The notes beneath the pieces are model-generated. The model was not told the DNA's origin. It did not search any database and saw only the letters and a program-made list of their open reading frames with translations. The position numbers and the translations under genes were made by a program. From the NCBI GenBank assembly GCA_036365515.1, contig CM070876.1:125871810-125935809 (forward strand): a stretch of DNA of 64,000 nt, in the 5' to 3' direction. Positions 10,691-61,238 of the stretch are shown here, piece after piece. How positions within the stretch are numbered: position 1 is the first letter of the stretch; each line of letters opens with the position of its first letter. This DNA is from Torymus aiolomorphi (taxonomy: Eukaryota > Arthropoda > Insecta > Hymenoptera > Torymidae).

Positions 10691-11844
<1,154 letters not shown>

Positions 11845-12710
11845 ATGCGTGTTGGACAAAATATTTAAAATACTTAAAATGATAAATAATATCATTTCAC
11901 TACGATATTATTGACGATATTATTTATCGCTAAATATAGATCTACTAACTGATCTACTACGATTGTTCGGAATTGAAATATCCAAAGTGCCCGCTAGATG
12001 GCAAGCGTCCGATGCGCTCCCACTATGAAAAACATCACCCAGCGGGCTTAAATAGAGTCCTGCGGCGCCTAGTCGCTACGTGCTTTATGCACAATCCTTT
12101 TACCTTACCACTTTCCCTTTTACCTATACAATGCCTTATTGCCTGTTTACTCGTACGCATAAGCGTTCATACCTTTTTCTGCAATCAACTTTCACTTTCG
12201 AGTAGAGTTGGTTGCATAGACTCTTGAAGTCTAATTTTCCCGTTTATTTCTTCTCGCTGACAAACCCTAATAATATAAACTCACGTTTACGTTCAATCGT
12301 ATACAACGATATTATTTATCATTTTAAGTATTTCAAGTACTTTGTGCAAAACGTATGGCTTGTCGCATGCGCGCACCGGTTGCGCTTCTCGCATACCTAG
12401 TATAGACATGGTCTTAAATGCAGGTTTTCTATAGTTTTACGTGCGTTATAAGTATAAGCTCAGGTTAAATGAATCCATTTTTCTGTGCGAGACACCTGTG
12501 AACCCGTCATCCGTTACACGACACACGGCACGGAATGTCCTTAAACAATGAGTACAAGTTACAATAAAAAATGAAATGAATATTTCTAAGTAGAATTGTG
12601 AAGGTAGTTGAGCAGAACTATTACCAAGTATATCAGTATTGGTTCGGTTGAGTTTTATAAATTGTATAATTGTGTTTTGTAAGTGCTATCTTCTCAGGAA
12701 TTGAAAGAAA

Positions 12711-16569: not shown

Positions 16570-16660
16570 GCTTGCTCGCGTCGCATGCGCGCATGGCTTG
16601 CTCGCGTCGCATGCGCGCATGGCTTGCTCGCGTCGCATGCGCGCATGGCTTGCTCGCATC
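16570..16660. repeat. GC-rich 26-bp tandem repeat
   Basis: Three full units and one partial unit of 26 bp starting GCTTGCTCGCGTCGCATGCG. They lie where the right TIR ends and are derived from the MITE end sequence. The motif CGCATGCGCG is itself palindromic. Confidence 0.85.
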
Positions 16661-17691
16661 GCTTGGGCTGATCGCACGTGCTTCTCGCATAGTGTAGACA
16701 CGGCCTAAGATCTTCAAAATATGCAGCCTCAGCACTTTTTTTAGGACAATTATGCCAAACTTATGGTTGATCTTGTAAATAAAACTTTTCCTATATTTCA
16801 CAAGCTCTAATTTTACCACTTGAAAAATATTTTTTTATAAAAACGGCTATAACTTTGGCTCTAGTGGTCCTAGAAAAATCAGCGACTACGGATTTTAAAG
16901 GTCTAGGAACCACCTTTGTATCTATGTTACGTATACGTGTCAAAAATAATTATAAGATGGTAGAATTCATGTCAGTAGAGAGCCATTTTTGATTATTTTA
17001 GGTATCGAAAAATTAGATATTATAATGCTCGACAAAAAATTATTTTTTGACTTTTTCCTATGATAGGAAAATAGTATAGTTAGATAATATCATATTCTAA
17101 TGAAAACTACTTTTGTTAATGATTTTTAATTAAAATTCGGTTGACACTGTGACCATGAACACGGTTGATTTTCGCGATTTTTGATAAAAACGTCAACTTC
17201 AAAAGGCTGTATCTTGAAGTCTATTCAATCAATTTAGGTCTTCAAAAAAAGAAATTAAAGATCTCGTTGAGACAAAAAAAAATGAGACCTAGTGAGCTCA
17301 AAAATGTGGAATCAGTTACGAGATATAGAGGTTTAAAGATGATCTAAAAATGATGAAATGCAATGGCCATATCACAGATCGCCAATAAAACCTAATTCAT
17401 CATTTCATATCAGTGTATTTTTTTTTCTCAAAATTTGAAGAAAGACAAGAAAAATGAGACCTCACCGACCTCATTTTGTTAAAATTTCAGCCTTTTAGAA
17501 TTTTTTGAAAACTGGCTAAAAACAGGTCAAAATCAGGGTTTAAAAAAATTCCAGCAGGAATTAGGAATGAGATAAGGGGCTGAAATTTTGCACAAGCTAT
17601 TTTTTTTATATGTACTTTCATAAAAAAAAATCGTCGACAAAATCGACGACCCCCCCGCGCACACTTTTTAAAAAAAGTACAGGAACGACCC
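16647..17691 (-). repeat. Right terminal inverted repeat
   Basis: Inverted copy of 10813-11844 with only scattered differences. The outer end is CAGGAACGACCC next to an AT repeat. The inner part carries a fragment of the MITE that sits in the left TIR. Confidence 0.9.
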
Positions 17692-18548: not shown

Positions 18549-19600
18549 TATGGCTATTGGTGAAGGATACCACGTAAAATAATAATCCAACGCGTCCATG
18601 AACAGTACCGCCAGGGTGACGTGGAAAACTGTTCTTCTCTTCAACCACTCTTTATAGTCACGTCAATTAAAAAAAATAATAATTTAAAAATAATTTAATA
18701 TTTTTAGGGTAATATTTACAAGGATTGCATATAAATATACAAAGGAACGATACATTATGATTTTGATATTCAACCAGTTTAGTGCTTATGTAGGGCTCTT
18801 GGCGAAGGATACCACTTTAAATAAAAATCCAGCGCATCTATTAACAGTACCTCTAAAGTGACGTGGAAAACTATTCTTTTGCTTATGCTTATTCCCTTTA
18901 TAATAAAATATTTCAATGAGAGAAAGCCTCTGACTATTAACACTAACTATTCTTTTGTTTATACCTATTCCCTTTATATTACAAATAATCGTTTAAGGAA
19001 TAGCTTAAGGGAGTTCTCTCGATTTTAAATTAGAACAAAATTTGAAGAACTGGTTAGTACCTCTATCTCTTCGACTCTGTCTCAATGTCTATGTCTCTCC
19101 AACTCTGTCTTTACATCTCTGTCTCTATGCATTTGTCTCTATGCGTCTGTCTCTACATCTCGGTCTCTTCGTCTCAACCTCCACGTATCCATCTCCACGT
19201 CTCTGTCTCTCCGACTTTGCCTCTATGTCTCTGTCTCTCCAACTCTGTCTTTACGTCTCTGTCTATGCATTTGTCTCTACGCGTCTATCTCTACGTCTCT
19301 GTCTTTTCGTCTTTGCCTCTATGTCTCTGTCTCTCCGACTCGGTCTCTATGACTTTGTTTCTGCTGGCCTGACTCTGCGTCTCTGTCTCTACGTCTCTGT
19401 CTCTACATCCATGTCTCTACGTCTCTGTCTCTGCGTACCTATTCCCTTTATTAAAAGAAATATATCAAAATATAAATCTAACGCGTCTATGAATAGTGCC
19501 TCCATGGTGACGTGGAAAACTATTCTTTTGCTTATGCTTATTCCCTTTATAATAAAATATGCTAATGAGAGGAATCTTTTAACTATTAACACTCTTTTTT
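18549..19600 (+). repeat. Three diverged copies of a repeat ending in GTGACGTGGAAAACT
   Basis: Units near 18549-18650, 18793-18975 and 19434-19595 share GAAGGATACCAC (first two), the phrase AACGCGTC or AGCGCATC, AACAGTACC or AATAGTGCC, GTGACGTGGAAAACT, and for the last two CTTATGCTTATTCCCTTTA. A minisatellite separates the second and third. No coding capacity is recognised. Confidence 0.65.
19074..19440 (+). repeat. Pyrimidine minisatellite, TCTCTACGTCTCTG type
   Basis: Dozens of 6-12-bp variants built from GTCTCT, ACGTCT and CCGACT. Open frames across it are simple-sequence artefacts and are not annotated. Confidence 0.9.
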
Positions 19601-21046: not shown

Positions 21047-21725
21047 ACTTAGTTGTAGACGCTGATGGTAGAGTTGTTTAATAATAAGTGTATTCTGCTC
21101 TCCCAAGCTGCTCGCGTTCAATGATAATTTTTATTGAGGGTGTAGTGAATTCGTACACCATAGATCCTTTCGAGCATCATAAATTTATTGGTACACCGAC
21201 GTTTCGGGAGTATAATTAACTCCCCTTATCAAGGCTAAGCACAATGAACATACAAAAAATATTAAACATAACGGCAATTATAACATTTCTTGTCACATTA
21301 AAGAAAAAACTTTCTTTTCCCTTACCATTCGAGGTGGTACATCAATTTACAAATTTATAAAGCGGCCATAGCGTGGACTCCACGTGTCAAACAGTTTTTC
21401 TTTTTACAATAGATTTTGATTACATCACCAACATTTGTAAAGCAATACCTGTATAATGAGAATATTTAGAAAATTAAATTGTATTAAAGAAAAAACCCAA
21501 AATAAGAAAAAAAGCATGAAAATTAAAAAAAAACTTACATGTTACAAATCAGTCGTTTAGTCATAACGTTTGAAGCTGTTTTACCCAGGATGATGTAATC
21601 TCACTGTCCAAAAGAGACAATAAAAGTTACGGGCATCTCCGGGGCTATTTATACGGAATAAAGTAGTGGGGATAGAAATTTAGTAAGGAAATTGACTTAG
21701 TAACGCAGTGCCCACCAATGAAAAA
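21047..21725 (-). mobile_element. PLE1 3' untranslated region and pseudo-LTR
   Basis: Reading on the minus strand, this follows the GIY-YIG stop codon and ends in the AAACGTCGGTGT phrase and a pseudo-LTR (about 21121-21215). It is the inverted counterpart of 35114-35705, with the same TTATTCCGTATAAATAG and CACGTGGAGTCCACG landmarks. Confidence 0.75.
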
Positions 21726-22754
21726 CTACTCTCTGCTGCGTAACCGACGAGAATTTATGAATTTGTTAGGTTTGTTACGAATGTTCGTTGATCTATTAAC
21801 AATGTCGACTGTGGATTTATAACAATTTTTTAGTTTGATAGTATCAAACTGTCTATTCATATTATTATTGGTACTATAAATGTGTAACATCTCAGAAAAC
21901 AATCTTTTATTCTTATAACTTTCGTGATCAGCGATATTGACCTTATTAAAATCTATTTTATGATTATAAAAGTTTGCATGTTCGGCTAAAGCCGACGTGG
22001 TGTCACCATTCTTAACACTACGCTTGTGTTCATTAATGCGTAATCGTAATTGTCTACCTGTCTGTCCAATATATGACATTTTACAATCAGCACAATTCAC
22101 TTTGTAAACTACACCACTTTTTTCAAACTTATCAACATTATCCTTACCTAATTTAATATATTTAGAAAGTTTATTGCATGGTTTTTGTATAACCTTATAA
22201 CTATTACGAGACAGAATTGATTTCAATTTGTAACTGAGATGTTTAACGTATGGGATAACGATGAGTGATTTTTTAGAATCATCTGCAGTATTCGAATCGT
22301 TTATGTCAATTTGTAATTTTTTTGTAAAAGATAACCTACGTTGTATACCCTTGTTAATAAATTTTAACGGATAACCATTCTCAACAAGTAATTGTTTTAC
22401 AATATTTAAATTTTGTACATGAAATCTACTGTGTGATAAATTAATAGCTTTATCAACCAAACCATAAACAATCGCTCTTTTTTGTGATAAAGGATGATGC
22501 GAATCAAAGTGAACGAATCTACCAGAATAAGTACTTTTTCTGTAGCAATTTGAAATAATTTTATTACCTTCTCTTATTAGAGACATTTTTAAAAAATTGA
22601 TAGATTTATTCTCTTCATTTTCCATCGTGAATTTCAAATGTTCATTAAACTCATTAAATTCACATAAACATCGATCTATATCATTTTCCTTAATAATCAA
22701 TAGACAGTCATCAACATAACGTTTATAGAAAACAACACTATTTTTAAGGACATT
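21726..22754 (-). pseudogene. PLE1 reverse transcriptase C-terminal part plus GIY-YIG endonuclease
   Basis: Minus-strand frame starting at the LTR insertion. RT motif C appears early as YKRYVDDCLLI. A Lys/Arg-rich connector follows, then a zinc-binding C..C pair (VNCADCKMSY) leading into the GIY-YIG domain: VVYKVN, SYIGQTGRQLR, and RINEH with the conserved Arg. PLE enzymes combine RT and GIY-YIG for target-primed retrotransposition. This half is uninterrupted in frame down to its stop codon. The N-terminal side lies at 31766-32170, beyond the inserted LTR element, and is itself truncated, so the copy is dead. It shares almost all residues with PLE2. Confidence 0.85.
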
Positions 22755-22759
22755 GAGAC

Positions 22760-24265
22760 TGTTACGTGCCAATATATTTATTCTTAATTTATTAATTTTA
22801 ATTTATTCAACTTATTGTTAGCCGAGTAGCTTGCCATTGCGCAAAAAAAAATTAGGAAATAAGAATCGCGCGATGTCCAGAAATCGCTGCGCTAGCGGGG
22901 CAACGGCCTTGATCCGGCGCGACGACCGCGAGGAAACTCATACGAGCGCGAGGAGAACAGGCGCCGCGCTCGACCAGTGGCAGTACCTCCCGGCCACCTT
23001 TCGCGCTCCCTGCCTTACCTGCGCCGATAGCCGCTGCGGGAGCGAGAGAGACAGCGAACGACCGTAGTGGGAGCGAATTTTCGCGGATCCAGGTGTGCGA
23101 GCGGCGAAAATTCGTTGCCACGACAGTCGGAAATAATTAGTCAAAAAGTACAGTCGTTAACTTTTATCGGGAATATATGTTGTTTAAGAGTAATTTTTAT
23201 AAGTTCGTTAGGCGCTAGAATATTGACATCGTGTATTAGAATATTACCAAATTTACCACTATTATACGGGACCACTGGACTATAATTGAAGGAAAAATAA
23301 AAGAAAAGGAAAAAACTGACATATTGGTGAATATTTCATTTCAATTTCCGAAAACCCATAATTCCACACATTATTCCATTCTTCAAGGAATCCATCGAGT
23401 TACAACAAAAGGTGAGAATCTTTATTTATAACAATTCATTCATTTGGAAATTATTCGTTCGCGTGCAAGAATTTTAAAGATTGTTTTCTTCGGGCATTTG
23501 TTCATAATTTTCAATTGTTGTTAATCGCGTACTTGTTATTCGTAGCTGATATAGGAGCGTTTATTCCGTAAATTCTATAAAACTACTGTGAGACCGGCCA
23601 TAACTACGGGGTAATGGATCAGGGTTTCTAGTGCCGTGCGATTTCGTTATTGGCATTTTGCTCGTTAAACTAAAAATTTACGATAAAATTGTTAATGCGG
23701 ATTACCGAGAATTAATATCAATAGAAACTTAATAATTAGTAATAATCTAATAATATAGTAATTAATAATAACGAAAATATACAATATTAATAACAATAAT
23801 ATGATTAATAATAACCTTAATTGTTTTTTTTTACAAATAGTTGTTAATGAATTTAACCCTTTTTTTTCCCTAATAATTAATCATTAATCTAACCTAACTA
23901 CTATAAAACCATCTTACTAAACCCTAGCCCGGATTTCCCTCATGCATTAAGAAGTTGAGAGGATCATTATAGCATGATCGTCTAAACTTCCGAAGATTGA
24001 GGTGTACGATCCGTCGAGACTTAGGACTAATACGCGCATGAGATCAACAAAAATAAAAGCCAGGATTATGAAGACAAAGGGAAGAGCATGAAGAAGAAGG
24101 AACTATCAGCCCTTTCTCTACGATCGAAATATACCGTCATTAGATACCCGTAGTAAGGCGATTAGGATCTCTTAGGTAAAAGGAATGATAGATGTCCTGG
24201 GCGACATCCCAAAATAATTTATGGTTCTGCCCTTACGTGCGAGTATCTTAACCTCTCACGTAACA
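22760..24265 (+). repeat. 5' LTR
   Basis: 1506 bp, starting TGTTACGTGCC and ending CTCACGTAACA. Near-identical to 30253-31760. It contains a GC-rich block (22865-23100), ATTA-rich repeats and the sequence CTAACCTAACTACTATAAA. Open frames inside it are present in both LTRs and show no domain. Confidence 0.95.
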
Positions 24266-24274
24266 GCAGAATTA

Positions 24275-24292
24275 ATGGTAGCAGAGCGTGGT
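24275..24292 (+). promoter_or_regulatory. Candidate primer-binding site
   Basis: TGGTAGCAGAGCGTGG begins ten bases after the LTR. A TGG start fits the complement of a tRNA CCA end. I cannot name the tRNA from memory with confidence. Confidence 0.45.
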
Positions 24293-24386
24293 TGTTCGCT
24301 CTAACCTAAAAAAATTCTAATTCGCCTTCTTTTTGAGGAGAAAGATAAATATTTTTCGTCGACCCTTACGCGACCCTTTTAGCCCT

Positions 24387-24398
24387 TTTAGGTGAGTT
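24387..24398 (+). promoter_or_regulatory. Strong 5' splice site in the leader
   Basis: TTAG|GTGAGT, with GT at 24392-24393, lies 126 bases after the 5' LTR and well before the gag ATG. Together with the 3' splice sites upstream of the distal ORFs, it suggests spliced subgenomic RNAs for env and the accessory genes. Confidence 0.55.
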
Positions 24399-25047
24399 CT
24401 ACAGTAACATTCGAAAACTTAATCTAAATTTACTCTAATAATCTTAGACCGATATAAAATTCCATTGGAAAGTTGATTTATCTATATTTGGAGGTTAAGT
24501 GTATTTTTATATATGCAACAAATATTTTTCTTTTCGCGAACTAGAGGCATCTAATGATACAAGGAAGTAAATCGTTATAAGACATTTGTCTTTTTATTAA
24601 AAAAAAAAAATAAATAAAAAAAAAAATCTCAGCACTATTTTCGGATTACTAAAGAACTCTCTTAAGTAATTTTAATTCGATCCGGGTTGACCTCGATCCT
24701 CGGTTACTTTAACTTTTGCCGCCCTTTTTTTACCCCGACATTCTAAAGAATTTCCGACTAATCAAGAGGAGTAACTTCCTTTGAAGGGCTAATTAGGGAA
24801 AAGAAGAGGAGAACGATTTTTATCAACAACCCAGCATTAGGTTATTTTTTTTATTATTTGGCATTCTATCGATACCTCTTCTATTTATCATTTGTTAATT
24901 CCTCAAATATTGAAAGTTTTCAAACCGCTTTGCTTATTCTTATTACCTTTCGTATCTTTCGCCTGTTCCTGCCCTTGCTTGTCGGACTCAGGTGGAATTT
25001 TCTGAAGGGATGGTTAATCTTGCGTATCACTACTATTTCTTTTCACC

Positions 25048-26484
25048 ATGGTATTTCCTATTTTCGACGGATATAATATGCTCGTTGATGAGTTTATAGA
25101 AATAATCGAGCATGTGACCAGAGGAGTATCATCCCTATTTATGCAAAATTTCATAACCGATATTTTAAGCAGTCTCCGTGGGAAGGCAAGAAATATCGCT
25201 CTCCAATATTCCTATAAACATTACTTAGACGTCGAGGATCTCCTTTACGATCATTTTGGCCAGCAACCTGGTTGCGAAGAGATATTTCGGGACGATCTTA
25301 GGTACTGGTTGCCCTTATATGACGGCTATAACCTTTCCTTCCAGGACTTTGCTTATGAAGTGACGAAAACCGCATCTCGCGTGCCACATCGATTTTATGT
25401 AATATTTCTAGACGTTCTTCTAGAAAAATTAATTGGTAAGGCAAGAGAATCCATAGAATATATTAACGGGTTCAGGAATCATATGGACCTTCTAGACGAG
25501 TTGGGTGGGGTTTTCAGTGACAATCACGCCAGAAATTTATCTAGAAATTATCAACATGATGACCCCAATGAAGATGAAAATATCGTTGCTGATATTGGAC
25601 CTCCATGCCAACGCTCGACCGCTGGAATCTCTAATGATAGCAGTGTTCGGAATACCCTCTCACCGCTAAGTTATTCAGAAGAACAAAATATTACAGAATT
25701 GATAGAGATATGTGAACCACTGACATTAACAGCACTCAATCCAGTCACGATCGAGGCCATCGAAGCAAGTTCTGATTTTAACACCCCCGGCATCGTCGAA
25801 CACGGTGTCACAGAATGCCCAGTTATTGTGACTAATGCATTAAAATTAGGATTAGAACGCTTCGCCAAACCATTTCAAGTTCAAAACCATCGTAGCATGA
25901 ATTTGGAATATAGCATTCTCCAGTTAAACACCCACGATACTACGGAACCCCCGATATCCTACGAAGCAACTATCTTAACCAAGCCAGAAATACGCCCGGA
26001 GATCAATCTTGCCAACCATTCAATTAATCTTCACAATGTACGAACACACATCGTCCCTATATCCTTCAATAATGACAGCCGAGAACAGGTTTTCACCAAC
26101 ACCATCACAGATATATTGACAACTATATCCCTAGAACGACCACTAACCAGTTGTTTAGAAATTCAAGAGCCCATTTCTGACTCCCCCGCTGCAGTCGAAA
26201 AGATAACATGGACAGTAAGTGAGGCCCCCGTAATGGAAAATTCCGGTACTAGAAATAGACCCGACATCCAAACGCCTGAGGGTCACCAACATTCTTACAT
26301 AACTCCCCTTCGTACGTATGCGAATGAACTACTGCCTAGGCACTCAAAGAACTTTATATATTCTCCTAAAAGAACTTCTTCTAACGCGCCAAATGATACT
26401 CGACTTCAACACCCGAATTTTAAGTATAGAAAGAAAAGGTACTATAACATCGCAATCGCACACGCCATCAAAGAAATAGGATAG
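25048..26484 (+). CDS. gag: Gag-like protein, 478 aa, with duplicated core domain
   Basis: The ATG sits in CACCATGG context. Residues 1-75 and about 87-155 are two copies of one domain. Each shows the order hydrophobic-F/YDGYN, F, a helical stretch, L..L.GKAR, then a C-terminal LL/L...F helix. A PxFDG start and a GKAR-like turn are typical of the gypsy-type Gag capsid N-domain, so the capsid region appears to have duplicated. The remaining 300 residues are polar and low in known motifs, ending in a basic tail (RKKRYYN). No CCHC zinc knuckle is present. The frame is intact. It would form the particle, and RNA binding may rest on the basic tail (inference). It could alternatively be a Gag-like accessory product. 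Confidence 0.7.
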   Translation: MVFPIFDGYNMLVDEFIEIIEHVTRGVSSLFMQNFITDILSSLRGKARNIALQYSYKHYLDVEDLLYDHFGQQPGCEEIFRDDLRYWLPLYDGYNLSFQDFAYEVTKTASRVPHRFYVIFLDVLLEKLIGKARESIEYINGFRNHMDLLDELGGVFSDNHARNLSRNYQHDDPNEDENIVADIGPPCQRSTAGISNDSSVRNTLSPLSYSEEQNITELIEICEPLTLTALNPVTIEAIEASSDFNTPGIVEHGVTECPVIVTNALKLGLERFAKPFQVQNHRSMNLEYSILQLNTHDTTEPPISYEATILTKPEIRPEINLANHSINLHNVRTHIVPISFNNDSREQVFTNTITDILTTISLERPLTSCLEIQEPISDSPAAVEKITWTVSEAPVMENSGTRNRPDIQTPEGHQHSYITPLRTYANELLPRHSKNFIYSPKRTSSNAPNDTRLQHPNFKYRKKRYYNIAIAHAIKEIG

Positions 26485-26688
26485 ACACTCAGTGCAATGT
26501 TCAATATGTTCAATTTCTTAATGATCGAAACCAACAAAAACCACGTTGCATGAGAACTCGCCCTGTCGTCCAGCAACCGGAGGCGAGTATAGATCATCTG
26601 AGGCGGTATAACAAAAGAGCTTCCGACTAGCTTCATCAACATAACCAAAAGCACTGAGGAAGCAGTGAGATTGTATTAATTAGTATAT
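26485..26688 (+). other. Junction where pol would be expected
   Basis: Only about 200 bases separate gag from env. No protease, RT or integrase remnant is visible. A possible acceptor (CGCCCTGTCGTCCAG) lies near 26560, and TTAATTAG lies just before the env ATG. Confidence 0.5.
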
Positions 26689-28366
26689 ATGGTAGCAAGG
26701 TTGTCACCGACTCTTTACGAAATAACACCTATTAATTCCAATCCTGGAATCTATTATGAAAAATTACCATCAATCCGGATTCAGAGAGGAAATTTGAAAG
26801 TCATTATCCATCTAGATTTGCATGGGTTTCTTAAGGAACATGACCCTACTCGAATGTACAATGAACAATTGACCAAATGCGTAATCCACCTAGGAATTGA
26901 CCACTGCAATGCCACCCTAAATAAAGATCTTATGGAGGTGAAATTGACGACCCTCAGTCACGTACATGGGGACATAAAACAAGCAGCCATGTCTATAGAC
27001 ACTCAGCCAATTGACGACCCATCATCAATTAAAAATATTCGAGCACGCAGAATGGCCCCTCTTGGTATCATAGGAAGTGTAAGCAAAAGCTTGTTCGGTC
27101 TCATCACAACGGACGACGCGGATGCTATTAACAAGAACGTCGATCAGCTGTTTAGAGACCAAAAGAAACTCGTGAAACTCTCAGTTGAAAAGACACACCT
27201 CATCTCGGGCAATCTCGAAGAGCTGTATAACATCACCACCTTGCATCGAGAGACTATGAAGAAGATGGGTGAGACTTTGAATAACAAACTTAATGCAGTC
27301 TTGACCGAAGCTAACGAGAACCATCTAGCATGGGAACTTCCTACATTTGCTCGGCAAATGGAAACAAAGTTAGACCATCTGATACACTGTAATAGGGAGA
27401 TCCTAACGATCCTCAATACGCTGATCGAGAGGAAAGCTTTTGCGAAATGATGTACTCCACCAAATCGCCGTAGATATCCATATTTCTCCATCCTACCCTT
27501 ATTTGGCCGTGAAAAGGGACTTGCAGATGTATTTGAAACTCACCGAACAACATCTACAAGAATGTATCCGGACTCATTATGGACGCATTTGCCCACCTAA
27601 GGGCCCTTTATTTACCATCTCCGAACGAAAGAAATGCGAAGTGGAACTCTTACTCAATCCGCATCCTGACGTCCTCAAGTCGTGTGATATAATGATATCT
27701 TCATTCTCCTCGACCCAATGGCGTTACTTAGAACTAACTGATAGTTGGCTATACTCCATAATCAAGGAAGAAACGGTCCGAATCACATGCCCAGGGGAGA
27801 TCTCTTACACTCCGACTATTAAGGGCACGGGCCTGTTGAGGTTGGCCACTGGTTGCTCCGCCAGAACTCATACAGTGGAACTACCTGATAACCAGGATCA
27901 GACTGCCAAGTCTCAATACATGTACGCTCCAGACGTAGGCCTAAATATTACGGTCGTACATCCAGAGCTATGGCAACACATGAACGAGTCCACACCTTTA
28001 GAAATAGGACAACCGTCACCGGACACAGTCTTTACACCAAGGATGGAGCGTCTCACTAATATTGTCTTCCGTATGAAAGAGATAGGGGAACATAAAAGAG
28101 ACACTTCGTTCACTCGATCTCTAATATATGGAGGGATATCTTTTCAAGGCATAACAATTATACTTGGTGTAATCTCGTTTTTCCTCTATAGAAGGACAAT
28201 AGGGAAACGACACCAACCCTCATCGCGATATACTGGGAAAAGAGACACCGCAACTGTAGAAACTCCATTAACTTATGTAGCTATCCAACCTGTTCCTACC
28301 CGCTCAGTATCTACTCCCATCCTAATGTCACCCGCACTCCCACCCCAGTTGGCGGAACTCGATTAA
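26689..28366 (+). pseudogene. env: F-type envelope glycoprotein gene, broken by one frameshift
   Basis: Frame 1 (26689-27450, 253 aa) holds a furin-type RARR site at residues 118-121 followed by a Gly/hydrophobic fusion-peptide-like stretch (GIIGSVSKSLFG) and a long heptad-rich helix. Frame 2 (27440-28366, 308 aa) continues with the Cys-rich ectodomain (IC, CE, SCD, TCPGE, GCS), a transmembrane segment at about 228-250 and a short basic tail. This is the layout of insect errantivirus Env and baculovirus F-type fusion proteins. The two frames overlap by 11 bases, and a 1-nt indel near 27425-27440 separates them. An in-frame TAA lies 12 bases before the ATG and no signal peptide is visible, so the true N-terminus may come from a spliced leader. 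The broken frame makes this copy unlikely to encode a complete protein. Confidence 0.82.
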
Positions 28367-28377
28367 AATCATATATA

Positions 28378-28392
28378 TCTTCCTTTTCAGAT
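28378..28392 (+). promoter_or_regulatory. 3' splice site before the RRM-like ORF
   Basis: TCTTCCTTTTCAG ends at 28390, 30 bases before the ATG at 28421. A pyrimidine tract plus CAG is a good match to an animal acceptor. Confidence 0.5.
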
Positions 28393-28420
28393 CGAATAAA
28401 TAAAAAGAAAAAGAAAAAAA

Positions 28421-29107
28421 ATGGACCCTTCAACAAACCCTCCTCATTTCATCACCGTGATTTATCAAACGGACCTGGGACTCGATGGACTTATAACCTG
28501 TTTTAAACAGGCCGGACCTATTACTATTGTGGAAGTCATATCGGAAAGTTTAACTACCCAAACAACTAAGATCACATTCAAGAATCAAAAGGACGCCACG
28601 GTAGCAGAAAAATCTAAGGACCTTTGGCTATTGGAAACCACTTTGGCCTTCGAGAATGAAAGGATGCCTATTCCACCACGAAAAGCAAGGAAACGAACCC
28701 ATCCATCCGAACCCGGAACCAGGGAGAAGACTCGTATCTTTTGGCAAATACCCTGGCCAAAAGATCAGGGAAGGACGCAGGAACAATTGGAAGAAGAGTT
28801 TTTTTACCATTTTGCCCATTTTGGAATTCTAGAATATGTTCATACAATAAAAGACAACCAAGATCGGCTTTCTCATGGTTTCGTCAAATACCTGGAGGAG
28901 GAATCCGCACAAAGAGCTCTACAGAGAAGCGACATCCGATACCGAGCGATACCTGCGCGACCACAGTACTCCAAATCTATCTATAATATAAAGATTAAAC
29001 ACCAGAAATGTGGAATTGAAATCGACCGTCGAAATTTTGGACTACACGAAAAAACGTGTCATCGACAACGAGCATTAGGACCAAAAGCCTCCCTTCCCGG
29101 ATTTTGA
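28421..29107 (+). CDS. RRM-like protein, 228 aa, accessory ORF
   Basis: Residues about 103-180 read like an RNA-recognition motif. There is a beta-1-like RIFWQIPWP, a helix with EELEEEFFYHFAHFG (typical F..FG ending), and an RNP1-like SHGFVKYLEEESAQRAL. Residues 8-80 may form a second, weaker RRM-like fold (FITVIYQTD, LDGLITCFKQAGPI, TKITFKNQKDA). The tail has Cys and His (KCGIEI, HEKTCH) that could bind a metal. The frame is intact, starts AAAAAATGG, and lies between env and the coiled-coil ORF. RRMs are not a normal component of LTR elements known to me, so host-gene capture is plausible (inference). It might bind the element RNA and aid export or packaging, like accessory regulators of complex retroviruses. 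That role is speculative. Confidence 0.6.
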   Translation: MDPSTNPPHFITVIYQTDLGLDGLITCFKQAGPITIVEVISESLTTQTTKITFKNQKDATVAEKSKDLWLLETTLAFENERMPIPPRKARKRTHPSEPGTREKTRIFWQIPWPKDQGRTQEQLEEEFFYHFAHFGILEYVHTIKDNQDRLSHGFVKYLEEESAQRALQRSDIRYRAIPARPQYSKSIYNIKIKHQKCGIEIDRRNFGLHEKTCHRQRALGPKASLPGF

Positions 29108-29220
29108 AATTCATTTCCCTTGGACGATCCCGAAATTCCCCCCCCCCCCCCCGAAAACCAAAAAAAAGAAAAAACAAAAAAGAAAAAAAAAAGGACTAAG
29201 GACCCCGGACCTTACTTTTG
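29108..29220 (+). repeat. Poly-C and poly-A tracts
   Basis: About 15 C at 29138-29152, then an A-rich run to about 29192. Non-coding spacer between two accessory ORFs. Confidence 0.8.
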
Positions 29221-29228
29221 TTTCAGGC
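29213..29228 (+). promoter_or_regulatory. 3' splice site before the coiled-coil ORF
   Basis: CTTACTTTTGTTTCAG ends at 29226, six bases before the ATG at 29233. Strong pyrimidine tract. Confidence 0.5.
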
Positions 29229-29232
29229 CAAA

Positions 29233-29569
29233 ATGATACCGGACAGTCATCCTGTTTTCGCAGAAAGTCGACTGATTTATAGAGTCATAGAATTGGAGCA
29301 AGAATTGGTGAGACTACGGGCCGTCCACGAAGATCAATGGGCAACAATAAGTTACCTGGCGGATCAGGTGAAGGAACAGGAGGAAAAGTTTAAAAAAAAA
29401 CGCCATGATTATTGGTGTACTCTTCACAGAACGAACCGTGATGAAGAGCACAATGCATAAAATACTCGCTAAATCGGACAAAGTTCGGCAACATCTAGGC
29501 CATCTCACAAACTCAACCCTCCAACGGCTCACTGTTCTCGACAACCGAGTCAACAACCTGGAAGAGTAA
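29233..29569 (+). CDS. Small coiled-coil ORF, probably split by overlap or frameshift
   Basis: From the ATG at 29233 the first frame gives 75 residues with heptads rich in Leu, Val, Gln and Glu (VIELEQELVRLRAVHEDQW, then LADQVKEQEEKFKKK). It stops at 29460. A second frame (29441-29569, 42 aa) overlaps it by 20 bases and continues the heptad pattern (LTNSTLQRLTVLDNRVNNLEE). Either one coiled-coil protein was split by a 1-nt change, or two overlapping small proteins exist. I do not recognise a family. Its position after a good 3' splice site supports expression. Confidence 0.45.
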
Positions 29570-30235
29570 GTCCATGAGTTGACTTTGTCCTTTGCCCGCC
29601 TAAGTGTGAGCAACAAATCACCGCAAGACACGCAATAAACTTACGGACATCCGGACTTATCGACCACACTTACCCTAACCGACCCCCTCATTATTTAAGA
29701 AGGCCCTTTCGATCCTTCCCTTTCTTTTGTTCCAGAAAATGGTCAGCAAAGGAGAAGGCTATCGAGAGTCGTCTTGGGAGTTATCTTATTAGTTATCTAG
29801 GAGACAGACCACAAGAGGTAGCCGCAGCATAAAGATGCCGTACCTGAAATTAGTCCAGTCCATAGCGAGGCTTCGAACTGGACTAAGATTAATTCCTCGA
29901 ACTAGAAACAGCCAATCAATTAATTATAAAATTAATACATTAGGTCTGAAAAATCTATGGTTATCTTAGTCGAATCGGTGACCATAAATACCTACCCACT
30001 AAGAGGTTCGAAGCGCTTTTGTAAACCCGGCTATCAAGACAAGTGAACTGCTCTCAACCTTCGGATTCTCCCAAGATCTTTGTACCTCCTAAACTTTAAT
30101 AGCGACCTCTCCTCTGTTTACTAATTCCTAATAACAAATCGGGCAAGGACTTATATTGCGTCAAAATTATTGTGAATTCTGTTTGTAACCATTATTGTAA
30201 CCTCGTACTCATCGCACTTGCTGGGACGACAAGTA
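29570..30235 (+). other. 3' region of the pol-less element with another possible splice acceptor
   Basis: CCTTTCTTTTGTTCCAG ends at 29735, and an ATG follows at 29739 opening only 17 codons. No longer frame is supported. The rest up to the polypurine tract looks non-coding. Confidence 0.45.
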
Positions 30236-30252
30236 AAATAAGAGGGGGGTTA
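30236..30252 (+). promoter_or_regulatory. Polypurine tract
   Basis: AAAATAAGAGGGGGG followed by TTA directly before the 3' LTR. This is the expected position and composition of a plus-strand priming tract. Confidence 0.8.
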
Positions 30253-31760
30253 TGTTATGTGCCAATATTTTTATTCTTAATTTATTGATTTTAATTTATT
30301 CAACTTATTGTTAGCCGAGTAGCTTGCCATTGCGCAAAAAAAAATTAGGAAATAAGAATCGCGCGATGTCCAGAAATCGCTGCGCTAGCGGGGCAACGGC
30401 CTTGATCCGGCGCGACGACCGCGAGGAAACTCATACGAGCGCGAGGAGAACAGGCGCCGCGCTCGACCAGTGGCAGTACCTCCCGGCCACCTTTCGCGCT
30501 CCCTGCCTTACCTGCGCCGATAGCCGCTGCGGGAGCGAGAGAGACAGCGAACGACCGTAGTGGGAGCGAATTTTCGCGGATCCAGGTGTGCGAGTGGCGA
30601 AAATTCGTTGCCACGACAGTCGGAAATAATTAGTCAAAAAGTACAGTCGTTAACTTTTATCGGGAATATATGTTGTTTAAGAGTAATTTTTATAAGTTCG
30701 TTAGGCGCTAGAATATTGACATCGTGTATTAGAATATTACCAAATTTACCACTGTTATACGGGACCACTGGACTATAATTGAAGGAAAAATAAAAGAAAA
30801 GGAAAAAACTGACATATTGGTGAATATTTCATTTCAATTTCCGAAAACCCATAATTCCACACATTATTCCATTCTTCAAGGAATCCATCGAGTTACAACA
30901 AAAGGTGAGAATCTTTATTTATAACAATTCATTCATTTGGAAATTATTCGTTCGCGTGCAAGAATTTTAAAGATTGTTTTTTTCGGGCATTTGTTCATAA
31001 TTTTCAATTGTTGTTAATCGCGTACTTGTTATTCGTAGCTGATATAGGAGCGTTTATTCCGTAAATTCTATAAAACTACTGTGAGACCGGCCTAACTAAC
31101 TACGGGGTAATGGATCAGGGTTTCTAGTGCCGTGCGACTTCGTTATTGGCATTTTGCTCGTTAAACTAAAAATTTACGATAAAATTGTTAATGCGGATTA
31201 CCGAGAATTAATATCAATAGAAACTTAATAATTAGTAATAATCTAATAATATAATAATTAATAATAACGAAAATATACAATATTAATAACAATAATATGA
31301 TTAATAATAACCTTAATTGTTTTTTTTTACAAATAGTTGTTAATGAATTTAACCCTTTTTTTCCCTAATAATTAATCATTAATCTAACCTAACTACTATA
31401 AAACCATCTTACTAAACCCTAGCCCGGATTTCCCTCATGCATTAAGAAGTTGAGAGGATCATTATAGCATGATCGTCTAAACTTCCGAAGATTGAGGTGT
31501 ACGATCCGTCGAGACTTAGGACTAATACGCGCATGAGATCAACAAGAATAAAAGCCAGGATTATGAAGACAAAGGGAAGAGCATGAAGAAGAAGGAACTA
31601 TCAGCCCTTTCTCTACGATCGAAATATACCGTCATTAGATACCCGTAGTAAGGCGATTAGGATCTCTTATGTAAAAGGAATGATAGATGTCCTGGGCGAC
31701 ATCCCAAAATAATTTATGGTTCTGCCCTTACGTGCGAGTATCTTAACCTCTCACGTAACA
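30253..31760 (+). repeat. 3' LTR
   Basis: 1508 bp, TGTTATGTGCC...CTCACGTAACA. It differs from the 5' LTR by about a dozen substitutions or short indels, e.g. ATATATT/ATTTTT near the start and a small insertion at GGCCTAACTAACTACGG. Confidence 0.95.
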
Positions 31761-31765
31761 GAGAC

Positions 31766-32170
31766 AATGAAGTTCTAAACATTCGAGAGCTAACTCTCCA
31801 AACCACGGACTAGAACAACCATCCATAGGAGCCCCATGAATTTGTTTGAAGTACTTGCCATCAAATTTAAAATATGTAGAAGACATAAGAAAAATAACAC
31901 CATCAAGAAACTCTTGTAAACTTAAATTAATTCTGCACTTTAAATATTTCCATATACGTCCGATCCCCGTAAGCACTAAATCAATATTTATGTTAGTGAA
32001 TAATGAAACAACGTCAAAGGAAACTAATCTACAATTATCGGGTACGTTAATTTTTGAGACAGAATCTAATAATTCGTAACTATTTTTAAGTGAGGATTTA
32101 GGTTTCGGCAAATACTTTATAAAAAATGTAGAAATAGCTTTATCAAGTTTATACGTTGGCGAGTTAATAA
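31766..32170 (-). pseudogene. PLE1 reverse transcriptase fragment (5'-truncated)
   Basis: Minus-strand RT core with NSPTYKLDKAISTFF, then VSFDVVSLFTNI (motif A with catalytic Asp) and HGAPMDGCSSPWFG (motif B region). It resumes across the LTR insertion at 22754. Homology to PLE2 ends abruptly at 32170, so about 460 N-terminal residues are missing. This suits 5' truncation during retrotransposition. The open frame continues to 32468 only by reading the antisense of the PLE2 leader. Confidence 0.8.
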
Positions 32171-32176
32171 TAATAA

Positions 32177-32313
32177 GTTTATCAATAAATTTATGATGCT
32201 CGAAAGGATCTATGGTGTACGAATTCACTACACCCTCAATAAAAATTATCATTGAACGCGAGCAGCTTGGGAGAGCAATAACCTTTTGAATATACAGGCA
32301 TTGGATCTGAACT
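32177..32313 (+). mobile_element. PLE2 upstream pseudo-LTR
   Basis: Matches the PLE2 3' end at 35637-35703 (ATGATGCTCGAAAGGATC ... CCCTCAATAAAAATTAT) in the same orientation. It lies directly between the head-to-head PLE1 and PLE2 copies. Confidence 0.7.
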
Positions 32314-35113
32314 ATGATGCCAAATTGTGAAGAGGAGGCAATGAACTGCAGATATAAACAAAAGACGCAGCCTACGGCTATGATAAATACCGAGCGGACG
32401 TTGACATCTATGCGGATTTTGACATCTAAGACACGTGCGAATATCAATGCTGAATTATACTCTCTCATACAGAGTGATCAGGTTAATAACTTAGTTATTT
32501 TTCGTTTTATACAAACCGAAATTAGTATTACCGCAAAAAAATCGTTTATTCAACTTTCAAAAATTTTACATTCGATAACAAAAATCAACTGTGATATAGA
32601 GTTTTTATCCAAATGTAAGAAATATGACGTTTTTCCTAAACACATTGTTAATACTACCAAAGCTTTTAGTTACATTAATTTGGATAGTAATATTTCAAAA
32701 AACAAACTTAATAGCTTAACAAATCTAGTCTTGAACAAATTGCTTAAATTGGAAATTACTGATTTTTATTCAAAGATAAATAGATTGCAAAAGAAAAAGA
32801 ATGATTTGTTTGTTATGACTAAGAAATTTACTAATTTAAAAATAGTTAAAGCTTTTATTAAACATTATAAGAATTCTCTCTCTTCTATCAAACTCAAATG
32901 GCAATACGTACACAACAAAAAGTTTTCCAAATTATTTTATGATAAATATAATTATGATTATCATTATGATAATTTCCAACGGAATTCTGCGGACGATAAC
33001 TCACAGAGAAACTGTCAAGTATTAACAATGTGTAACTTTAATAATAATATCTGTGATAATGGTGATAATACTAATGATAACAATAGGTATGACAAATGGT
33101 TTATAAACCTAACGGAAAATCACATTCCACAACATATACAGGACATTGTTAGGCTAGGGCAGAATTTTAATTTTACATGCAATCCGAGTCAGAGCACATA
33201 TTTTCAAATTCTTAAAAATTTGGATTGTTATATTACAGATGTGTCTGATGAATCTAATAAATTACGCGGTGAGTTAGTTAACTGTGTAAATTCCTTTGCA
33301 AAAAAGAAATTACATTTGCCACATACAGATGCAGTTATTATGAGTAAAATTTCAGCTACTGACAAATTTGTTAAAGATAACAAAAATATATTATTTACTA
33401 AAGCTGACAAGGGAAATGTTACGATTGCAATTGACAGGGAAAATTATAATAAAAAAGTCCTTGAAGTTCTTTCGGATGATAAATATTATAAGCAACTTTT
33501 CAAAAGACCACTTAACATTCTAAAAAAGTCAGTAGATTTATTAATAAAAAAGTGGATTAATCGTGGCGTTTGTGACCTTGATTCCAGCTTTGACATTTTG
33601 AAAACAAACAATAACAATACAGATCTAGCGCGTGCATATGGCTTAATAAAGATCCATAAAAAAGATTTGCCAATCAGAATTATTGTTTCGACGGTTAACT
33701 CGCCAACGTATAAACTTGATAAAGCTATTTCTACGTTTTTTATAAAGTATTTGCCGAAACCTAAATCCTCACTTAAAAATAGTTACGAATTATTAGATTC
33801 TGTCTCAAAAATTAACGTACCCGATAATTGTAGATTAGTTTCCTTTGACGTTGTTTCATTATTCACTAACATAAATATTGATTTAGTGCTTACGGGGATC
33901 AGACGTAAATGGAAATATTTAAAGTGCAGAATTAATTTAAGTTTACAAGAGTTACTTGATGGTGTTATTTTTCGTATGTCTTCTACATATTTTAAATTTG
34001 ATGGCAAGTACTTCAAACAAATTCATGGGGCTCCTATGGGTGGTTTGGAGAGTTAGCTCTCGAATGTTTAGAACTTCATTGTCTCAATGTCCTTAAAAAT
34101 AGTGTTGTTTTCTATAAACGTTATGTTGATGACTGTCTATTGATTATTAAGGAAAATGATATAGATCGATGTTTATGTGAATTTAATGAGTTTAATGAAC
34201 ATTTGAAATTCACGATGGAAAATGAAGAGAATAAATCTATCAATTTTTTAGAAATGTCTCTAATAAAGAAGGTAATAAAATTATTTCAAATTGGTACAGA
34301 AAAAGTACTTATTCTGGTAGATTCGTTCACTTTGATTCGCATCATCCTTTATCACAAAAAAGAGCGATTGTTTATGGTTTGGTTGATAAAGCTATTAATT
34401 TATCACACAGTAGATTTCATGTACAAAATTTAAATATTGTAAAACAATTACTTGTTGAGAATGGTTATCCGTTAAAATTTATTAACGAGGGTATACAACG
34501 TAGGTTATCTTTTACAAAAAAATTACAAATTGACATAAACGATTCGAATACTGCAGATGATTCTAAAAAATCACTCATCGTTATCCCATACGTTAAACAT
34601 CTCAGTTACAAATTAAAATCAATTCTGTCTCGTAATAGTTATAAGGTTATACAAAAACCATGCAATAAACTTTCTAAATACATTAAATTAGGTAAGAATA
34701 ATGTTGATAAGTTTGAAAAAAGTGGTGTAGTTTACAAAGTGAATTGTGCTGATTGTAAAATGTCATATATTGGACAGACAGGTAGACAATTACGATTATG
34801 CATTAATGAACACAAGCGTAGTGTTAAGAATGGTGACACCACCTCGGCTTTAGCCGAACATGCAGACTTTTATAATCATAAAATAGATTTTAATAAGGTC
34901 AATATCGCTGATCACGAAAGTTATAAGAATAAAAGATTGTTTTCTGAGATGTTACACATTTATAGTACCAATAATAATGTGAATAGACAGTTTGATACTA
35001 TCAAACTAAAAAATTGTTATAAATCCACAGTCGACATTGTTAATAGATCAACCAACATTCGTAACAAACCTAACAAATTCATAAATTCTCGTCGGTTACG
35101 TAGCAGAGAGTAG
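32314..35113 (+). pseudogene. PLE2 reverse transcriptase/GIY-YIG polyprotein gene, frameshifted
   Basis: 32314-34056 encodes 580 aa. A long Lys/Asn-rich N-terminal region is followed by the PLE RT: KADKGNVTIAIDRENY, YGLIKIHKKDLPIR, VSFDVVSLFTNI and HGAPMG. A 16-bp deletion relative to PLE1 at about 34041 shifts the frame. The next frame contains YKRYVDDCLLI, and a second frameshift near 34270 leads to the frame at 34379-35113, which holds the zinc pair and GIY-YIG domain. In the endonuclease the conserved Arg of RINEH reads Cys (CINEH), so even that domain is probably inactive. Full length would be typical of PLE proteins (about 900 aa). Confidence 0.87.
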
Positions 35114-35705
35114 TTTTTCATTGGTGGGCACTGCGTTACTAAGTCAATTTCCTTACTAAATTTCTATCCCCACTACTTTATTCCGTATAAATAGCCCCGG
35201 AGATGCCCGTAACTCTTATTGTCTCTTTTGGACAGTGAGATTACATCATCCTGGGTAAAACAGCTTTTGACGTTATGACTAAACGACTGATTTGTAACAT
35301 GTAAGTTTTTTTAAATTTTCATGCCTTTTTTCTTATTTTGGGTTTTTTCTTTAGTACAATTTAATTTTCTAAATATCCTCATTATACAGGTATTGCTTTA
35401 CAAATGTTGGTGATTTAATAAAAATCTATTGTAAAAAGAAAAACTGTTTGACACGTGGAGTCCACGCTATGGCCGCTTTATAAATTTGTAAATTGATATA
35501 CCACCTCGAATGGTAAGGGAAAAGAAAGTTTTTTCTTAATGTGACAAGAAATGTTATAATTGCCGTTATGTTTTTTGTATGTTCATTGTGTTTAGCCTTG
35601 ATAAGGGGAGTTAATTATACTCCCGAAACGTCGGTGTATCAATAAATTGATGATGCTCGAAAGGATCTATGGTGTACGAATTCACTACACCCTCAATAAA
35701 AATTA
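35114..35705 (+). mobile_element. PLE2 3' untranslated region and pseudo-LTR
   Basis: Inverted counterpart of 21047-21725. It ends with CCCGAAACGTCGGTGTATC and CCCTCAATAAAAATTAT, the PLE terminal phrase. Confidence 0.75.
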
Positions 35706-36020
35706 TAATAATAAGTGTAGTTGATCCTAATGGCCGTATCTACCAAGTGGTGTGTTGATTGTTATGGCAAAGGTTGCAATAAAACACAACACATCTATAT
35801 ATTTTCTTTAATCGACGTTTCGGACATTTTTTATTGCATGTCCCTCTTCAGAAGCTAATTTTTAACAAAATTATTTTACAAATTAATACACATGTATGCT
35901 TTTTTACAACAATAACTTCGATTACAACATATTACAATATAAAACTTACATAAAAACTTAGTCAACGGACGTACATCACAGGAAGAGACCCCACTTGTCA
36001 ATGCTTAATGATTAAAATTT

Positions 36021-37271: not shown

Positions 37272-38312
37272 CCCTGGCGGAAGTAAAAACTGCACATATT
37301 AGACTTTTGTAAAGAAATGTGCAAAAATGTGCAGAAATGTGCAGAAGTGTGCGGTTATGTGCGGGAATGTACAGAAATGTACAGAAATGTACTCTAATAT
37401 GTACAAATGAATGTTTATTTATCATACTAAACGAAACAAGAATTTCATTTTCTTCAATTCAAAAAACATTTTCTTAAAGTAAGAAAATATTTACAGAACG
37501 AAAATTTGAAAAATATAAACTTCTTTTTTGATAACACTCTAGAATAAAGCCAATACCAAAGAAGAAAATTTAGAGAATATATTTTCAGTACTGGTCTGAT
37601 TTCTACTTTACCGGCACTAAATTTGTTAAGTAAATCGAATTTAATTAATTAATGTCTTATCATTAAGTTATTCATTTTCTTAAAATATTGTGTAAATATA
37701 AAAAATTATTAAAAATCATTAATATATTAGATGAATAATCAAAATGTAATATCAATTAAATACGGATAATGCACCTTATGTAGATGAAAATGCCCAAATT
37801 CTTTAATGCGAGTGATAGCGTAACGGTTTGCGTGCGTGTGTAGTAACCCAAGGGTCGTGGGTTCGATTCTCGGTCAGAGAGAAAATTTTATGTAAGATTT
37901 TTTCTGCGATAATTAAAATGCAATTTAATTGATAATAAACAATTTCTAATGAACATGCGAAGTTTTTATACATTTATGAAGCTCATTAATTTTTCATCTG
38001 ATAATTATATTGAATTGTACCTACATCTTTGTATATTTTTGCAAATTTCTGCACATTTTCGTACATTTCTGTACATTTCTACACGTTTCTGCACATTTCT
38101 GCATATTTCTGCACATTTTTGCATATTTTTGTACAAAAGTCTAATAAGTGGACAAAATGTGCAAAAATGTGCAGAAATGTGCAGAAATGTGCAGAAATGT
38201 GCAGAAATGTGCAAACATGTACAGAAATTTACAAAAATGTGCAGAAATCTACATAATTGTACATATATGTGCAAATATGTGCAGATATGTGCAGTTTTTA
38301 CTTCCGCCAGGG
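37272..38312. mobile_element. TIR element with TGTGCAGAAA tandem repeats
   Basis: Ends are CCCTGGCGGAAGTAAAAACT and its exact inverse. Next to each end lie tandem 10-bp units of the type TGTGCAGAAA (37318-37390 and 38157-38300), plus inverted units at 38030-38130. The middle is AT-rich. Open frames over the repeats are low-complexity. An internal copy of the sub-terminal AGACTTTTGTAC sequence near 38130 points to a nested or duplicated end. Confidence 0.7.
37806..37884 (+). ncRNA. tRNA-like Pol III promoter sequence (possible SINE head)
   Basis: TAGCGTAACGG at 37816-37826 fits the A-box consensus, and GGTTCGATTCT at 37860-37870 fits the B box, at normal tRNA spacing. The acceptor stem does not close, so it is not a functional tRNA. 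It may be a SINE head or tRNA pseudogene inside the TIR element. Confidence 0.45.
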
Positions 38313-38959
38313 CAGCATTGGCCGAATTCCCATCTCTACGAGCACATGTCTCCCTACTACCTCGCGCCTGTCGCTACCGCTGAAAATTGCGTCCCCCACC
38401 AGTACTATAGTCACTTTGTATTAGTATTGTCTGTTATATACTCCTGACTTACACAAACATATACACTCAGTATATAAGGCCAAAAATTTTAATCATTAAG
38501 CATTGACAAGTGGAGTCTCTCTCTGTGATGTACGTCCGTTGACTAAGTTTTTATGTAAGTTTTATATTGTAATATGTTGTAATCGAAGTTATTGTTGTAA
38601 AAAAGCATACATGTGTATTAATTTGTAAAATAATTTTGTTAAAAATTAGCTCCTGAAGAGGGATATGCAATAAAAAATGTCCGAAACGTCGATTAAAGAA
38701 AATATATAGATGTGTTGTGTTTTATTGCAACCTTTGCCATAACAATCAACACACCACTTGGTAGATACGGCCATTAGGATCAACTACACTTAACTTTTTA
38801 GATAAGTATTTTAAAATATACATTGACAGTAGAAAGCAGAGATCAAGATGTAGTTCTGTTTTTATTTTATTTATTATTACTGTCAGATCAGATCTTAGAA
38901 ATTGAGTCTATCCCAACTATACGGCTACTACAATACAAGAGTTTAGATAAGTATAATTT

Positions 38960-45183: not shown

Positions 45184-45472
45184 TATGCGGGTGCTCCTGC
45201 TCTCCCGCCTCGAGTATGTGTGAGTAACGAGGGACGAGGAACGGGAGATGAAAGGATCGCAGTTAATGAAAGTCAACGGCACTTTGTCGTATGCACCGGA
45301 GTGCAGTTTATTCAGTCAGTGTTTATCTCTACTATTTACAGAAAGGGGCGCATTGCGCGCGCCCGTGGACGAAGCCTTCTTCAACGCTAACGCCAGAGCT
45401 ATGGCGTGAGCGCGGTGCTTGAGGAGTTCGGGGTTGGACCGTCCTGCTTGAAGCTGAGATGGCGACCGAATG
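45184..45472 (-). repeat. Truncated 3' LTR
   Basis: Matches 48785-49072 with few differences and ends at the deletion junction after GCGACCGAATG. Confidence 0.9.
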
Positions 45473-47113: not shown

Positions 47114-47159
<46 letters not shown>

Positions 47160-47364
47160 ATTGGAGCTGAAGTTGCATGGAGGCTTGCACCGTCGTACGT
47201 CGCAGCCGAAGATGCGGTGATACCAGCAGACCTCTCTGGCTGTTTGGTTGGCTGATGACGATCTCGATCGTCGATTTCCGCTGTTGCCTCTGCTGTTGCT
47301 TCTGCCTCTGCCTCTGGAGTGTTGTTGTTCGACACCTTTCCCAGGATGTCTCTCGAGACACCAA
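45473..47364 (-). pseudogene. pol: Pol fragment: protease, RT, RNase H start
   Basis: The frame includes a poly-Ala run from the CTG repeat, then protease FLIDSGSTISLLP. RT follows with SSQWASPLHMIKKQNG, YRALNAITTPDRYPIPRI and LDLNRAYFHIPV. The active-site box reads YLIDDLLIAS, one residue longer than the usual Y-x-DD. RNase H starts at LILSTDASSTCIGAAL and breaks off after NYSPYGRE, where translation runs into LTR sequence. Integrase is absent. It lies in the gag-proximal frame of a minus-strand gypsy element. With no integrase this copy is non-autonomous. Confidence 0.85.
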
Positions 47365-48756: not shown

Positions 48757-48772
48757 TGTTTGCTGGAGAATT

Positions 48773-48783
48773 CGGGGTCACCA
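48773..48783 (-). promoter_or_regulatory. Primer-binding site, tRNA-Trp type
   Basis: On the minus strand TGGTGACCCCG directly follows the 5' LTR. It complements CGGGGTCACCA, the 3' end of animal tRNA-Trp with CCA. Confidence 0.75.
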
Positions 48784-48784
48784 A

Positions 48785-52131: not shown

Positions 52132-52338
52132 TATTAAATAATAGTCTTGCTTATTAATGCATGTCTACGTAATTCCCTAATATATGTGGACCTCGTATCC
52201 CCCGCCTACTTGGGTTTAAAAATTGTTTAAATAGTTGTCTTGCTTATTGTTGCACGTCTACGTAATTCCCTAACATGCGCGGACCTCATATCCCCCGCCT
52301 ACTTGGGTTTCAAAATTATTTAAATAATCGTTTTTATG

Positions 52339-61205: not shown

Positions 61206-61238
61206 GCGAATTCTAATTCAGTTGTGTTTCTAGGAATC

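What the first reader, a model, noticed from the sequence alone, without database searches (positions are those of the whole stretch)
22760..31760. Recently inserted LTR element that has env and accessory ORFs but no polymerase
Seen: matching LTRs, GAGAC duplications, intact gag, an env frame pair, two further ORFs, and no protease, RT, RNase H or integrase motif. Known: non-autonomous LTR elements usually lose everything, or keep gag and sometimes pol. Keeping env and extra genes while losing pol is unusual. Inference: a parasite of an autonomous relative, possibly still packaged and spread by it.
Basis: partly seen in the sequence, partly recalled or inferred. Interest (0 to 1): 0.88.

Follow-up and report, generated by a model that had tools for sequence, protein, structure and literature searches.

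The report
Polymerase-less retroelement carrying RBM45-like gene
A retrovirus-like element that lacks its own copying enzyme sits cleanly inserted in another mobile element, carrying a broken envelope gene and an intact gene resembling the cellular RNA-binding protein RBM45; it likely moves by borrowing a relative's enzymes.

Summary
Element: 22760-31760, LTRs 1506/1508 nt, 11 substitutions in 1505 aligned sites, GAGAC duplications. A nearby Penelope-like copy shows the unfilled site with one GAGAC, so integration was genuine. Pfam on all 61 internal frames of 40+ aa finds no pol domain, yet finds RT in both other gypsy-type elements of the window. Corrections: ORF1 sits where gag should but matches no gag family. 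Env (Baculo_F) is frame-broken and lacks 72 residues seen in relatives. The main 'further ORF' is an intact two-RRM protein whose best solved relative is RBM45, with eight database relatives at 43-78% identity. P0001, from an unnamed source, fuses ORF1, a short env-like match and RRM in one frame: these genes look linked in a second lineage, but this does not prove that lineage lacks pol. Most likely a non-autonomous element moved in trans. Copy number and helper are untested: the genome search did not complete. Precedent for env without pol: rotifer TelKA2n. New variant of a known kind.

The parts
22755..22759 (.). 5' target site duplication GAGAC
   Evidence: empty site
22760..24265 (+). 5' LTR, 1506 nt, TGTTAC...GTAACA
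24276..24287 (+). likely primer binding site TGGTAGCAGAGC (initiator-Met-tRNA type, recalled), starting after a 10-nt spacer from the LTR
   Evidence: the tRNA match is recalled, not tested
24389..24397 (+). only splice-donor-like site of 8/9 or better in the internal region (last exon base 24391)
   Evidence: consensus only
25048..26484 (+). ORF1, 478 aa, intact, in gag position; N-terminal unit of about 66 aa repeated in tandem; no gag-family match
26680..27450 (+). env piece 1: Baculo_F N-terminal part with RARR cleavage-like motif (motif read by eye)
   Evidence: PF12259, 37.5 bits
27425..28366 (+). env piece 2, other frame: Baculo_F C-terminal part with a membrane-like segment (by eye); 72 residues of relatives absent near its start
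28421..29107 (+). RRM ORF, 228 aa, intact: two predicted RRM folds and a Cys/His tail; RBM45-like
29233..29460 (+). small ORF, 75 aa, charged and helical-looking by eye, unknown
29372..29569 (+). overlapping small frame on the same strand, unknown
30240..30249 (+). likely polypurine tract AAGAGGGGGG
30253..31760 (+). 3' LTR, 1508 nt
31761..31765 (.). 3' target site duplication GAGAC

Best explanation
This is an integrated LTR element with no polymerase gene that carries a gag-position ORF, a broken F-type env and an intact two-RRM gene resembling RBM45, and it was likely copied and inserted by the enzymes of a pol-bearing relative. Shown: LTRs, target duplication, empty site, absence of pol domains, the env lesions, the intact RRM ORF and its relatives. 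Inferred: its RNA starts in the 5' LTR, is packed into particles built with or without ORF1 protein, is primed at the Met-type PBS and is reverse-transcribed and integrated by a helper's RT and integrase. Inferred too: the RRM protein, probably taken from a host RBM45-type gene, binds the element's RNA and helps its export, splicing control or packaging, which would give a polymerase-less parasite an edge in competing for the helper. Env in this copy is not expected to give a full-length protein by ordinary translation, so cell-to-cell spread would depend on other copies or a helper.
For: Complete LTRs and TSD, candidate PBS and PPT. Unfilled site in a Penelope-like copy, junction continuous with one GAGAC. 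No pol domain in 61 of 61 internal frames of 40+ aa, with a positive control in the same window. ORF1 identical to P0001 at 353 of 477 columns. RRM ORF continuous and alignable over 96-97% of its length with P0002-P0004, P0007 and P0008; the other three of eight are shorter; PF00076 in 9 of 9 members. P0001 carries ORF1, a 12-residue env-like match (8 of 12 identical; 0 of 1000 shuffles of that 24-residue stretch as good, against each of five env sequences) and 56 aligned RRM residues (42 of 56 identical to P0003) in one reading frame.
Against: No second copy with this junction and no helper was seen, because the genome search did not complete. P0001's join lies elsewhere, so pol could have been lost there with the join. 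ORF1 has no gag-family match, so particle formation is unproven. The whole P0001 tail did not exceed the best of 300 shuffles against any of six env relatives; only the short stretch, chosen after looking, did. The splice-site scan found fewer strong acceptor-like sites on the plus strand (5) than on the minus strand (11).
Confidence: 0.55

Rival explanations
1. A lone internal deletion: an ordinary gag-pol-env-RRM element lost pol, before or after insertion, and left no pol-less family.
For: Env carries two lesions and the small downstream ORFs lie in two frames, so the copy is decaying or was already damaged. P0001 is itself an internal join (or a spliced message), so such losses may happen in this group.
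Against: ORF1 keeps its own stop, and env keeps its N-terminal part (Baculo_F match from profile position 22 of 609), with only 195 nt between the two frames, so a single random deletion would have had to be clean. LTRs differ by substitution at only 11 of 1505 sites.
Confidence: 0.28
2. The family is a stable two-part system: pol sits on a separate partner element with the same LTR ends, PBS and packaging signals, and the ORF1/env/RRM part is an obligate companion rather than a parasite.
For: Intact ORF1 and RRM ORF with no pol; relatives of ORF1, env and RRM exist at overlapping identities (74%; 73-89%, the 89% over 12% of the query only; 43-78%).
Against: No partner seen. By blastn, LTR, ORF1, RRM and tail match nothing else in the window at E 1e-3 except a short inverted match inside the LTR. 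The overlapping identities also fit an autonomous family.
Confidence: 0.1
3. A provirus remnant that the host keeps for use of ORF1 or the RRM protein (domestication).
For: Two intact ORFs beside a broken env.
Against: Near-identical LTRs and an insertion in another mobile element leave little time for domestication.
Confidence: 0.04

Closest known systems
TelKA2n, non-autonomous LTR family of bdelloid rotifers (PMC5408684; passages seen)
   Same: Keeps an env-like ORF while missing most of pol.
   [quoted passage not shown] here ORF1 is whole, env is of Baculo_F type and broken, and an RRM gene is present.
Errantiviruses / insect endogenous retroviruses (gypsy, ZAM; PMC13172572 abstract and passages)
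   Same: LTRs and an F-type env after the gag-side ORF (the layout of errantiviruses is recalled).
   Different: Those encode pol (recalled); here there is none, so the lineage cannot be placed by RT.
MDG1-group retrotransposons with sORF1/sORF2 (PMC11952523; outline and one section)
   Same: LTR elements with accessory ORFs, one of which is reported to matter for cell-to-cell transmission.
   Different: Those have gag and pol; their small ORFs lie before gag and are not described there as RRM proteins.
TR-GAG and other non-autonomous plant LTR elements (search listing only; definition recalled)
   Same: LTRs and no pol.
   Different: TR-GAG keeps gag only; here env and RRM genes are present and ORF1 matches no gag family.
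RBM45 (PDB 7csx, 7csz)
   Different: The element protein is short (228 aa) and ends in a Cys/His tail; many other RRM proteins lie within 1 Z unit, so fold alone does not single out RBM45.

Membership tests
LTR retroelement | Two direct LTRs with TG...CA ends and a target site duplication | tested here: met
LTR retroelement | PBS after the 5' LTR and PPT before the 3' LTR | tested here: inconclusive
   Candidate sites at 24276-24287 and 30240-30249; tRNA match recalled, no tRNA gene found in the window
Autonomous errantivirus / Metaviridae | pol with protease, RT, RNase H and integrase | tested here: not met
   61 of 61 internal frames of 40+ aa without a pol domain; tblastn; positive control
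Autonomous errantivirus / Metaviridae | gag of a known family | tested here: not met
   No match of ORF1 in Pfam up to E 10; its repeat units only vRNAP_dom at 0.036, below cut-off; no gag chain in the PDB. Position alone suggests gag
Baculo_F env | Match to PF12259 above the curated cut-off | tested here: met
   37.5 and 64.4 bits against 24.1; pieces scanned apart
TR-GAG | gag as the only gene between the LTRs (recalled definition) | tested here: not met
   env and RRM present
TelKA2n-like env-bearing non-autonomous element | env kept, pol lost, present as a family | tested here: inconclusive
   env kept though broken, and pol absent; copy number not tested as the genome search did not complete
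RBM45 | Best sequence match among solved proteins is RBM45 tandem RRMs | tested here: met
RBM45 | Orthology or direct descent from the host RBM45 gene | not testable with these tools
   No host RBM45 sequence at hand

The most novel reading that the evidence does not exclude
A polymerase-less satellite retrovirus that traded pol for a captured RBM45-type RNA-binding protein and uses it to steer its own RNA into a helper's particles: a virus-of-a-virus among LTR elements, conserved in more than one lineage.
Probability: 0.25. Interest if true: 0.82.

Novelty: new variant of a known kind. Interest (0 to 1): 0.6.

Why it matters
If other copies share this layout, it gives a case where an LTR parasite keeps structural and accessory genes but no enzymes, against the common pattern of loss, and where a host-type RNA-binding protein has become an accessory gene. 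That would make testable how non-autonomous elements compete for a helper: by a protein that marks their RNA, not by sequence alone.

Tried and rejected
Own-genome copy search: eleven requests to the genome search did not complete, so copy number and helper stay open. Related loci in viral contigs for ORF1, RRM (single and alignment A1) and env piece 2 and in genome contigs for A2 and A1: pattern matches but 0 relatives each; these collections hold viral, bacterial and archaeal sequence, so this says little. Phage records: no ORF1 match. Rfam and tRNA scans of the window: 0 hits. NCBIfam gave no match above a cut-off for six element frames and P0001. ORF1 structure model: pLDDT 30.8, not used. 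Splice-acceptor idea: pyrimidine-rich CAG sites lie before the ATGs at 28421, 29233 and 29739 (first exon bases 28391, 29227, 29736), but a crude scan gives 5 strong sites on the plus strand against 11 on the minus strand, and 3 against 6 with an ATG close by; kept only as a hint. The minus-strand ORF 29317-29640 has no family match above a cut-off and lies opposite the small ORFs; not counted as a gene.

I first took P0001 as proof of a pol-less relative (note); its join lies between the end of ORF1 and a mid-env match, so the lost stretch may have held pol, and I withdrew that. The last part of P0001 (from residue 531) matches five env sequences no better than shuffles do (73 to 870 of 1000 as good).

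Papers: ten searches. Among the titles and abstract starts listed, none describes an LTR element with an RBM45-like or RRM accessory gene; most searches list only a part of their hits. 'errantivirus' with 'RRM' gave two papers, both on beet, and 'RBM45' with 'retrotransposon' gave nine listings on other subjects. PMC12440569 was seen as abstract and outline, PMC6338049 as outline only, PMC12992720, PMC8672886 and PMC6431247 as passages only; the passages of PMC12992720 held nothing on pol loss.

Full report
What is there. The two repeats at 22760-24265 and 30253-31760 align as LTRs over their whole length: 1495 of 1510 columns identical, with 4 gap columns, in an alignment that runs one base past the 3' end of each LTR; 8 transitions and 3 transversions in 1505 ungapped sites, K2P 0.0074. 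They begin TGTTA and end TAACA and are flanked by GAGAC on both sides. The element lies in a Penelope-like element on the minus strand. A second, inverted copy of that element lies at 33695-34779, and the joined flanks of the insertion match it straight through the junction with a single GAGAC, 1074 of 1102 columns identical. That is direct evidence of one integration event with a 5-bp duplication. The LTR distance points to a young insertion; no rate was measured, so I give no age.

No polymerase. One search lists 61 stop-free frames of 40 aa or more between the LTRs, both strands. Pfam was run on all 61: five, ten, forty-six. The only families above their cut-offs were Baculo_F (two pieces) and RRM_1. 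Three pol ORFs of two other gypsy-type elements in the window, used as tblastn queries, gave no hit below E 0.61 in the internal region. As a control, the same Pfam library gave RVT_1 in both gypsy-type elements, RNase H in one, integrase in the other, and a protease match there just below its cut-off. A decayed remnant in shorter frames could remain; a working pol could not.

ORF1. The 478-aa ORF at 25048-26484 is open. It stands where gag stands, but no gag family matches: nothing in Pfam up to E 10, no PDB chain up to E 10, no gag chain for a profile of its repeat units. Pfam did recognise the gag of the gypsy-type element at 56230. Residues 1-85 and 86-175 are related: score 77 against a highest value of 51 in 2000 shuffles, and the same duplication is in the relative P0001. 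The one relative among 5380 candidates is P0001, identical at 353 of 477 columns. The structure model is too poor to use. I therefore call it a gag-position ORF.

Env. Both pieces match Baculo_F above its cut-off. Six relatives among 475 candidates were found with piece 2. Four of these six (P0010, P0013, P0014, P0015) cover, in whole or part, a stretch of 72 residues that is absent here next to the frame change; P0014 and P0015 run through the place from the piece-1 side to the piece-2 side. The gene is thus broken in this copy in two ways, while relatives continuous there exist.

Linkage in a second lineage. P0001 is one continuous 575-aa protein: ORF1, then 12 residues like env (8 of 12 identical), then 56 aligned RRM residues that are closer to P0003 (42 of 56) than to the element here (27 of 50). 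This shows that ORF1 and RRM sequence travel together in a lineage 26% diverged in ORF1; env between them is likely but less sure. The whole P0001 tail did not exceed the best of 300 shuffles against env proteins; the short stretch did, 0 of 1000, but it was chosen after looking. The join leaves out ORF1's last residues and the first part of env, so whether pol once lay between cannot be told. It may be a deletion or a spliced message, as the source is not named.

How it most likely works. With ends and priming signals in place and no enzymes, the element would need RT and integrase from a pol-bearing relative. The RRM protein would be made from its own message and bind the element's RNA. These steps are inference. 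The Met-type PBS is recalled from general knowledge. Splice signals are only hints.

Against what is known. Env kept with pol lost is not without precedent: TelKA2n in rotifers (PMC5408684, passages). In zebrafish the pol portions of ERVs are said to be retained more often than gag and env (PMC8672886, passages), so the pattern here is against that trend. LTR elements are known to pick up further ORFs, also after env (PMC6431247, passages). In the listings of ten paper searches I did not see an LTR element with an RBM45-like gene.

Verdict. A real, young, pol-less LTR element with an unusual accessory gene; new variant of a known kind. Whether it is a family or a lone deletion is the open point that one genome search would settle.

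Noticed in passing
21121-22802, 31761-32477 and 32311-35709: Two Penelope-like element copies in inverted orientation, arms 96-98% alike in the listed pairs; one is the target of the LTR element. GIY-YIG match E 9.5e-4, below its cut-off.
   Followed up: partly
45184-49073: Another pair of direct repeats, 289 nt and 97% alike, around an ORF with RT and RNase H on the minus strand: looks like a short LTR element.
   Followed up: partly
56230-61205: Gypsy-type element with zinc-knuckle gag, RT and integrase ORFs and a protease match below cut-off, followed by two further ORFs at 61206-62525; the second has no Pfam match, the first was not scanned.
   Followed up: partly
11210-11849 and 16642-17281: Inverted repeats of 640 nt, 99% complementary, flanking ORFs 12902-13603 and 14470-15543 without Pfam match at E 0.01: looks like a DNA transposon.
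   Followed up: no
25048-25557: ORF1 starts with a tandem duplication of a unit of about 66 aa, shared with P0001; its function is unknown.
   Followed up: partly
19062-19449, 37298-38328, 49668-52339: Tandem arrays with units of 14, 10 and about 93 nt.
   Followed up: no
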